Below, piece by piece: positions 49,669 to 51,821 of a stretch of 64,000 nt of DNA (positions are counted from its first letter, which is position 1; every line of letters starts with the position of its first letter). This stretch comes from Prochlorococcus sp. AG-363-O06. GTDB taxonomy: Bacteria; Cyanobacteriota; Cyanobacteriia; PCC-6307; Cyanobiaceae. The DNA is taken from NCBI GenBank assembly GCA_003280085.1, contig QCFY01000002.1, forward strand, positions 62,001 through 126,000. The letters run 5' to 3'. The notes under the pieces are model-generated. The model did no database searches and was not told the DNA's origin. It saw only the letters and a program-made list of their open reading frames with translations. Both the position numbers and the translations under genes were made by a program.

Positions 49669-50412
49669 ATGGCTCCAACAGCCTTGTTAAGCGTTTCCAA
49701 TAAAGAAGGTTTAGTCCCTTTAGCAAATGCCCTGACCAGTCAGCATGGTTTCAAGCTTATTTCAAGTGGAGGCACTGCAAAGCTACTAGAAGAAAACGGA
49801 ATACCGGTACAACGAGTAGCAGACTTCACAGGGGCTCCAGAAATCCTTGGGGGCAGAGTAAAAACCTTGCATCCCCGAGTACATGGAGGAATCCTTGCAA
49901 AAAGAGATGACAAATCTCATGAGAAAGATCTAAACGAACAAAACATCCCTCTAATTGATTTAGTAATTGTAAATCTCTATCCATTCCAGGAAACCATTAA
50001 GGATCCCAAGGTGAGCTGGGATAAAGCCCTCGAAAATATTGATATAGGAGGTCCAACAATGATTCGAGCAGCAGCCAAAAACCATGCAAACGTTGCAGTT
50101 CTCACAAAGCCTGAACAATACGGCCCATTCCTAAAAGCATTGCAAAGCGATATCAACGGAATAACTCTTGAGATTCGCCGTTCACTTGCACTCGACGCGT
50201 TCGAACACACGGCCACTTACGACATTGCAATAAGCAAATGGATGCAAACAAAAATCGATAACAACAAATCACCGTGGATGGAGGCAATGCCTCTTAAGCA
50301 AACTCTTAGATACGGAGAAAATCCACACCAAGCAGCAGCTTGGTATAGCCAAAACAAGAAAGGATGGGGGGGGGGCAACTCAATTGCAAGGGAAAGAATT
50401 AAGCACAAATAA
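49669..50412 (+). pseudogene. purH: purH 5' part (IMP cyclohydrolase), ends early by a frameshift
   Basis: The first 247 codons of bifunctional PurH: the IMP cyclohydrolase domain, with [17 protein letters not shown] at the start, [15 protein letters not shown], and [10 protein letters not shown], and then the beginning of the transformylase domain, [11 protein letters not shown]. At a run of ten G residues (50366-50375) the frame shifts and runs into a stop after 13 further codons of non-PurH sequence. One G fewer would restore [21 protein letters not shown] and join the next ORF. It is either a real lesion, a slippage site or a sequencing error. Confidence 0.85.
50366..50375 (+). repeat. 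G10 homopolymer run inside purH
   Basis: Ten consecutive G residues in AT-rich DNA, the longest G-run I noticed here. In the family the region codes for a loop between PurH domains. The reading frame is correct before the run and in the -1-base register after it, so nine Gs would keep purH whole. Confidence 0.95.
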
Positions 50413-51232
50413 CTTGCTTGATTTGGAAGCGGCGTTTTGCACAGTTAATGAATTTGGCTATGACATATATGAGCAAAAAACTGAATGTGAGCCCGCAGCT
50501 GTTGTCATAAAACACACCAACCCATGTGGAGTCGCTACTGGGAAGACACTAGAACATGCACTCAAAAGAGCCCTTGATGCAGATCGAGTTAGTGCTTTTG
50601 GAGGAATAGTTGCACTTAACTGCAATGTAGATGAAACAACAGCAAGTGAAATCAATAGTCTCTTTCTAGAATGTATTGTTGCGCCTAGTTTTGACAAGTC
50701 AGCGCTAGAAATACTTTCAAAAAAGCAAAATTTACGTGTAATCCAGCTTAAAAAAGAGTCAATCCCGTCAACAAATCAATATGACCTAAAAAGCATCTTA
50801 GGGGGTATGGTATTTCAGCAAAAAGATAATAAACCCGTCCTTACAGACCATTGGGAATTAGCAACCAAACATGAACCGAGTAAGTTACAACTAGATGATC
50901 TGATCTTTGCTTGGAAAATAGTCAGGCATGTTCGCTCAAATGCAATTGTTATAGCTGGTTCAAGACAAAGCCTGGGAATAGGTGCTGGGCAAATGAATAG
51001 AATAGGATCTGCAAAAATAGCTCTAGAGTCAGCTGGTGAAAAAGCAAACGGTGCTGTTCTAGCAAGCGATGGATTTTTTCCCTTTGATGACACAGTAAAG
51101 TTGGCCTCGAAACATGGCATTAATGCAATAGTTCAACCTGGTGGAAGTAGACGCGACCCTGAATCAATTAAAGCTTGTAATGAATTAGGTATCTCTATGC
51201 TCTTCACAGGGAGCAGGCACTTCTTGCATTAA
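50384..51232 (+). pseudogene. purH: purH 3' part (AICAR transformylase), out of frame with the 5' part
   Basis: The remainder of PurH: AICAR formyltransferase, with [37 protein letters not shown] and [20 protein letters not shown] at the C-terminus, ending H LH as in family members. It could start at TTG 50384 by itself but lacks its own Shine-Dalgarno and overlaps the 5' part, so it is more likely the second half of one gene. Together the two parts would give a protein of family size, about 520 residues. Confidence 0.85.
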
Positions 51233-51269: not shown

Positions 51270-51821
51270 TTAACTATTATCTTTAGGGTAATAAGTGATT
51301 TTATTAGTTTTCTTAAACGCAGCTAATCTCCCAGGCCCAGCACAAATAAAATAAAAGAAAATTGCTGCATATATTGCAGAAAGTTCAAAAGTATAATTAT
51401 GTGCTTCAACAACTGCCAATGGGAAGCCTTCTAAACCAGTATCAAGTAAATGAAAATAAACTGCGAAAGCCATTGTCGAAAACAAGCCCAAAGAAGCAAC
51501 TCTTGCAAAAAGACCTGTAGCAAGTCCTATTGGACAAATTATTTGAGTAACCGAAGCTGCATACGTCCAAATAATGGGATCGCCAGGTAAAAATGGGAAG
51601 TATTTAGATACAACAAACTCAGAAAAACCCTCTGGGTCTTGAAACTTCTCAAGTCCATGATGCACCATCATGATGGAAACTAAAATCCGCAAAACAAATA
51701 TGGCTAGTTCAGCAGTGATATTGATTTCACCAGCGGATGATGGGCTTTGCACAACTACTTCCACCTTTTGTGACCCATTAGCCTGCGAGCCCTGAGCCCC
51801 TGATTGCCCAATTTCAGCCAT
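51270..51821 (-). CDS. DoxX-like membrane protein
   Basis: A 183-residue protein with four hydrophobic segments after a 33-residue polar N-terminus, beginning ITAELAIFVLRILVSIMMVHHGLEKF (about residues 34-60, HGLEKF is the DoxX-family mark) and ending with AIYAAIFFYFICAGPGRL. DoxX proteins associate with thiol or oxidoreductase systems; function in cyanobacteria is unclear. It converges on purH with a 37-bp gap and is separated from ispH by 165 bp with no recognisable feature. Confidence 0.82.
   Translation of the reverse strand: MAEIGQSGAQGSQANGSQKVEVVVQSPSSAGEINITAELAIFVLRILVSIMMVHHGLEKFQDPEGFSEFVVSKYFPFLPGDPIIWTYAASVTQIICPIGLATGLFARVASLGLFSTMAFAVYFHLLDTGLEGFPLAVVEAHNYTFELSAIYAAIFFYFICAGPGRLAAFKKTNKITYYPKDNS

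What the first reader, a model, noticed from the sequence alone, without database searches (positions are those of the whole stretch)
50366..50375. Ten-G run splits purH into two overlapping frames
Seen: the IMP-cyclohydrolase half is in frame to the G run, the transformylase half is in frame after it, offset by one base. Removing one G restores the family sequence through [11 protein letters not shown]. PurH is essential in purine synthesis, so a dead gene is hard to accept for a free-living autotroph. Options: programmed or transcriptional slippage on the run, phase variation in a population, a recent lesion, or a base-calling error at a homopolymer.
Basis: partly seen in the sequence, partly recalled or inferred. 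Interest (0 to 1): 0.75.

Follow-up and report, generated by a model that had tools for sequence, protein, structure and literature searches.

The report
Probable sequencing artefact splitting purH gene
A run of ten Gs shifts the reading frame inside an essential purine-synthesis gene of a marine cyanobacterium, but three other conserved genes in the same draft genome carry the same kind of one-base surplus in G or C runs, so this is most likely an amplification or assembly error and not biology.

Summary
Ten Gs lie at 50366-50375; the IMP-cyclohydrolase half of PurH is in frame up to the run, the transformylase half after it, offset by one surplus base. It is the only purH in the assembly. 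The run is private to this genome: relatives encode the same Trp-Gly-x-Ala stretch with interrupted, in-frame codons, so there is no conserved slippery site. A genome-wide survey explains the rest. Four conserved genes are frame-broken (purH, aspS, a UbiD-like decarboxylase, an S9-type peptidase), each at a G or C run with exactly one base too many. Of coding homopolymers of 7 or more, 4 of 22 G/C runs change frame, against no clear case among about 380 A/T runs. A living cell with both AspRS and PurH broken is hard to accept. Published transcript data found G/C runs not prone to slippage; MutS and TrmD are intact; tRNA-Pro/Gly anticodon loops look normal. The assembly looks like a single-cell amplified genome, a class with about 3 indels per 100 kb. 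Verdict: most likely an amplification or assembly artefact (0.86). A real recent lesion and +1 rescue are not strictly excluded, because no second genome of this genus and no reads are held.

The parts
49669..50412 (+). purH, 5' reading frame: IMP cyclohydrolase (MGS-like) domain and the first part of the AICAR transformylase domain; homology ends at the G run, the frame stops 12 codons later
50366..50375 (+). run of ten Gs at which the frame changes; nine would keep the family reading frame
50384..51232 (+). purH, 3' reading frame (+1): rest of the AICAR transformylase domain, including KHTNPCG; TTG at 50384 is only the first start-like codon after the run

Best explanation
The tenth G is most likely not in the organism's chromosome. 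A one-base expansion at a G run was introduced after the cell was collected, by whole-genome amplification, library PCR or assembly of a draft that looks like a single-cell amplified genome. The real gene probably has nine Gs and makes an ordinary bifunctional PurH. Shown: the surplus base, its privacy to this genome, and the same one-base surplus at G/C runs in three other conserved genes. Inferred: that the assembly is a single-cell genome, and at which step the error arose.
For: Four conserved genes of this draft are frame-broken, all at G/C runs, all with one base too many. Of coding runs of 7 or more, 4 of 22 G/C runs change frame against no clear case in about 380 A/T runs. Two of the four, aspS and purH, are essential; aspS reads through in every relative in which it was found and the listed purH matches of relatives carry no stop. 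purH is single-copy here. The C half keeps all 108 columns that are at least 95% conserved. The draft has 38 contigs, the smallest 2,024 bases, 77% complete, and its nearest named relatives include many Prochlorococcus single-cell genomes. The published workflow for such genomes kept contigs over 2,000 bp and gave on average 3.0 indels per 100 kb on benchmark cultures (PMC6122165).
Against: No reads were available, so the G count was not re-measured. The source type is inferred, not read from a record. The same benchmark series found P. marinus single-cell assemblies to have the fewest indels (PMC5519541). Why all four errors are insertions is not explained (four of four has a two-sided sign-test value of 0.125).
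Confidence: 0.86

Rival explanations
1. A real, very recent slippage mutation in the sampled cell or lineage: replication added one G and PurH is now split, in a dying cell or one supplied with purines.
For: Homopolymer indel rates rise with run length in mismatch-repair-deficient bacteria (PMC5854121), and this is the longest G/C run of the genome. The C half is well conserved, so a loss would have to be recent.
Against: Three further conserved genes, one of them aspS, are broken in the same way; one viable cell with both aspS and purH lost is implausible. MutS1 and MutS2 frames are open, so there is no sign of a mutator.
Confidence: 0.09
2. Rescue in expression: the surplus base is real and the frame is restored by RNA polymerase skipping a base or by +1 ribosomal frameshifting on GGG-G and CCC-C.
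For: All four breaks need the same +1 correction and lie in runs of Gly GGG or Pro CCC codons; all downstream frames are open.
Against: No conservation of the run in relatives. In E. coli and Buchnera, insertions within homopolymers fell only in A/T runs, and guanine was depleted around transcription deletions (PMC5574713). TrmD is present; tRNA-Pro and tRNA-Gly anticodon loops look normal. Eighteen other coding G/C runs of 7-9 are in frame and would be harmed by efficient slippage.
Confidence: 0.03
3. Phase variation: the run length switches PurH on and off in a population.
For: A G10 run inside a coding frame is a typical anatomy for phase variation (own knowledge).
Against: The gene is a single-copy biosynthetic gene and not a surface or restriction gene; relatives lack the run; similar surpluses occur at runs as short as seven.
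Confidence: 0.01
4. Two separate genes: the two frames make two proteins that work together.
For: Both halves are open, and a TTG codon lies at 50384.
Against: The break lies inside the AICAR transformylase domain, separating RYGENPHQ from KHTNPCG, not at the domain border. Of 70 relatives' PurH frames over 450 aa, 69 are at least 500 aa long.
Confidence: 0.01

Closest known systems
Spurious frameshifts at homopolymers in draft and single-cell amplified genomes
   Same: One-base indels in homopolymers of otherwise conserved genes, several per genome, in a fragmented draft with a 2,000-base contig limit; frequency within the published benchmark of about 3 indels per 100 kb (PMC6122165)
   Different: Here the detected cases are confined to G/C runs and all are insertions
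Transcriptional slippage rescue at poly(A) tracts in endosymbionts (Buchnera, Blochmannia)
   Same: Conserved gene broken by one base at a homopolymer
   Different: Those tracts are A/T; G/C runs were found not prone to slippage (PMC5574713); here the run is not conserved
Frameshift-suppressor tRNAs and loss of m1G37 methylation (+1 at CCC-C and GGG-G)
   Same: Direction of shift and codons fit (own knowledge of the suppressors)
   Different: Anticodon loops look normal and TrmD is present
Phase-variable poly-G tracts
   Same: Length and composition of the run
   Different: Housekeeping gene, run absent from relatives

Membership tests
PurH (bifunctional AICAR transformylase / IMP cyclohydrolase) | Both domains match the family profile | tested here: met
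   Halves match PRK00881 at 6-232 and 243-510 of 510, PF02142 and PF01808
PurH (bifunctional AICAR transformylase / IMP cyclohydrolase) | Both domains in one reading frame | tested here: not met
   Frame changes at 50366-50375 as assembled
Homopolymer indel artefact of a draft assembly | Several conserved genes of the same assembly broken at homopolymers | tested here: met
   Four genes, all at G/C runs
Homopolymer indel artefact of a draft assembly | Homologues in relatives intact at the same place | tested here: met
   purH and aspS; UbiD-like gene intact in G064; S9 peptidase not compared
Homopolymer indel artefact of a draft assembly | Raw reads disagree with the consensus, or differ in run length | not testable with these tools
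   No reads held
Programmed or transcriptional slippage site | Slippery run conserved in relatives | tested here: not met
   Relatives have interrupted codons, at most seven Gs, in frame
Programmed or transcriptional slippage site | Product across the run | not testable with these tools
   No transcript or peptide data held
Phase-variable tract | Run length differs between cells or strains | not testable with these tools
   Only genome of its genus held; closest DNA 72% identical

The most novel reading that the evidence does not exclude
The four one-base surpluses are real, and this lineage expresses essential genes through routine +1 frameshifting, or base skipping in transcription, at runs of Gly GGG and Pro CCC codons.
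Probability: 0.03. Interest if true: 0.85.

Novelty: not a real feature. Interest (0 to 1): 0.08.

Why it matters
It warns that conserved genes that look broken at G/C runs in single-cell drafts of marine cyanobacteria should not be taken for pseudogenes or recoding sites without reads. If the surplus bases proved real, it would be a very unusual case of tolerated frameshifts in essential genes.

Tried and rejected
Sister strains: none held; the genus has one genome and the closest DNA is 72% identical. A 16-base pattern from the site was scanned in viral contigs and gave chance hits only. Apparent PurH truncations in G332 and G059 are contig ends; G229 is broken at a different place, not at a G run. 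An excess of long G runs in this genome: not unusual for the family. A frame-change survey of 139 relatives' loci gave mostly noise from antisense ORFs; the best-supported cases (L068, L069) were inspected and are not frameshifts. My first reading of the aspS run as in frame was wrong: that ORF ends about 25 residues later (corrected). A DNA alignment of the site was made on wrong stretches and orientations and is unusable.

Full report
What is there. Ten Gs occupy 50366-50375. Upstream, the frame starting at 49669 encodes the IMP-cyclohydrolase half of PurH and ends 12 codons past the run, at 50412. Downstream, the +1 frame encodes the rest of the AICAR transformylase to 51232. The family profile places the halves at positions 6-232 and 243-510 of 510, so the change of frame is pinned to the run. 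With one G fewer the reading would be [14 protein letters not shown]. purH is present once. The window is part of a 1.42 Mb, 38-contig, 77% complete draft, the only genome of its genus held.

Is the run conserved? No. Relatives with Trp-Gly-x-Ala at this place use codons that interrupt the run (for example TGG GGA GGA GCT, TGG GGT GGT GCA); the longest seen there is seven Gs, in frame. Of 400 family genomes searched, 363 have the transformylase half and the listed matches carry no stop. Two short frames are contig ends and one genome is broken elsewhere. Some weaker hits (G182, G260, G277, G283, G327) were not inspected.

Is the gene decaying? The C half keeps every one of 108 columns that are at least 95% conserved in relatives. 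Its overall identity is lower, relative to the N half, than in any of 32 relatives (difference +2.0 against a mean of -2.7, sd 1.6). I read this as faster change at variable sites in a gene still under selection, not as a long-dead gene. It does not separate artefact from recent lesion or rescue.

Genome-wide context. I fetched almost the whole draft (1,418,669 bases) and looked for changes of reading frame in two ways: tblastn with ORFs of a complete relative (387 orthologue-like queries, one frame change) and a hexamer-based frame model over all contigs. Besides purH, three conserved genes are clearly broken: aspS at C1:164860-164867 (eight Cs where GAPPHGG needs seven), a UbiD-like decarboxylase at C14:21598-21604 (seven where six keep the frame), and an S9-type peptidase at C6:69683-69689 (likewise). 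The last two names rest on sequence resemblance, not on a profile search. All four are G/C runs with one base too many.

Counts. Among coding runs of seven or more, 4 of 22 G/C runs change frame. Three A/T runs were flagged against 380 in frame; on inspection two are gene junctions and one is ambiguous. Fisher p is about 7e-6 without those three and 2e-4 with them. The frame model cannot see breaks very near gene ends, so four is a lower bound. In the relative G064 two switches at A/T runs were seen and not followed up.

Reading the pattern. AspRS truncated before motif 3 should be inactive (established knowledge of class II synthetases), and aspS reads through in every relative in which it was found. 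A living cell with aspS and purH both broken is hard to accept, so either the bases are not in the chromosome or they are tolerated. Tolerance finds no support: in E. coli and Buchnera transcriptomes all insertions within homopolymers fell in A/T runs, and G/C runs were judged not prone to slippage (PMC5574713); TrmD is present; tRNA-Pro and tRNA-Gly anticodon loops look normal; and 18 other coding G/C runs of 7-9 are in frame. MutS1 and MutS2 have open frames, so there is no sign of a mutator.

Likely source of the error. The draft has the features of a single-cell amplified genome, including a smallest contig of 2,024 bases, and its relatives in the collection include many such genomes. The published workflow for Prochlorococcus single cells kept contigs over 2,000 bp and showed on average 3.0 indels per 100 kb on benchmark cultures (PMC6122165); a related paper notes that P. 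marinus single-cell assemblies tended to have the fewest (PMC5519541). Four detected gene-breaking indels in 1.42 Mb is well within the benchmark.

Limits. That this is a single-cell genome is inferred. No reads, no sister genome and no proteomics were available, so the count of Gs was not re-measured. Four insertions out of four suggest a biased error but are not significant alone (two-sided sign test 0.125).

Verdict.

Noticed in passing
G000:C1:164860-164867 (loci L115, L182): aspS (aspartyl-tRNA synthetase) is frame-broken at a run of eight Cs, where seven keep the frame; motif 3 lies in the downstream frame.
   Followed up: yes
G000:C14:21598-21604, minus strand: UbiD-like decarboxylase gene frame-broken at a run of seven C on the coding strand; intact in G064.
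   Followed up: yes
G000:C6:69683-69689: S9-type peptidase gene frame-broken at a run of seven Gs.
   Followed up: partly
G000:C8:13159-13235 (locus L124): The tRNA with anticodon CAT (initiator type) has nine Cs at the T-stem/acceptor junction, leaving an A-C mismatch in the T stem; G064 has a paired stem there. It may be a substitution error in the run.
   Followed up: partly
L133 (G229:C46:6700-8900): purH of another genome (a draft with 6% contamination) is frame-broken upstream of RYGENPHQ, not at a G run.
   Followed up: partly
G064:C1 near 804510 and 244103: Frame switches at a T9 and an A12 run in a complete relative; not checked whether they are lesions or gene borders.
   Followed up: no
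window 51270-51821, minus strand: Small membrane-type protein next to purH with a sub-threshold match to the HvfX family (38 bits, cut-off 80).
   Followed up: no
window 50384-51229: The transformylase half of PurH is more diverged relative to the N half than in 32 relatives, while all highly conserved columns are kept.
   Followed up: partly
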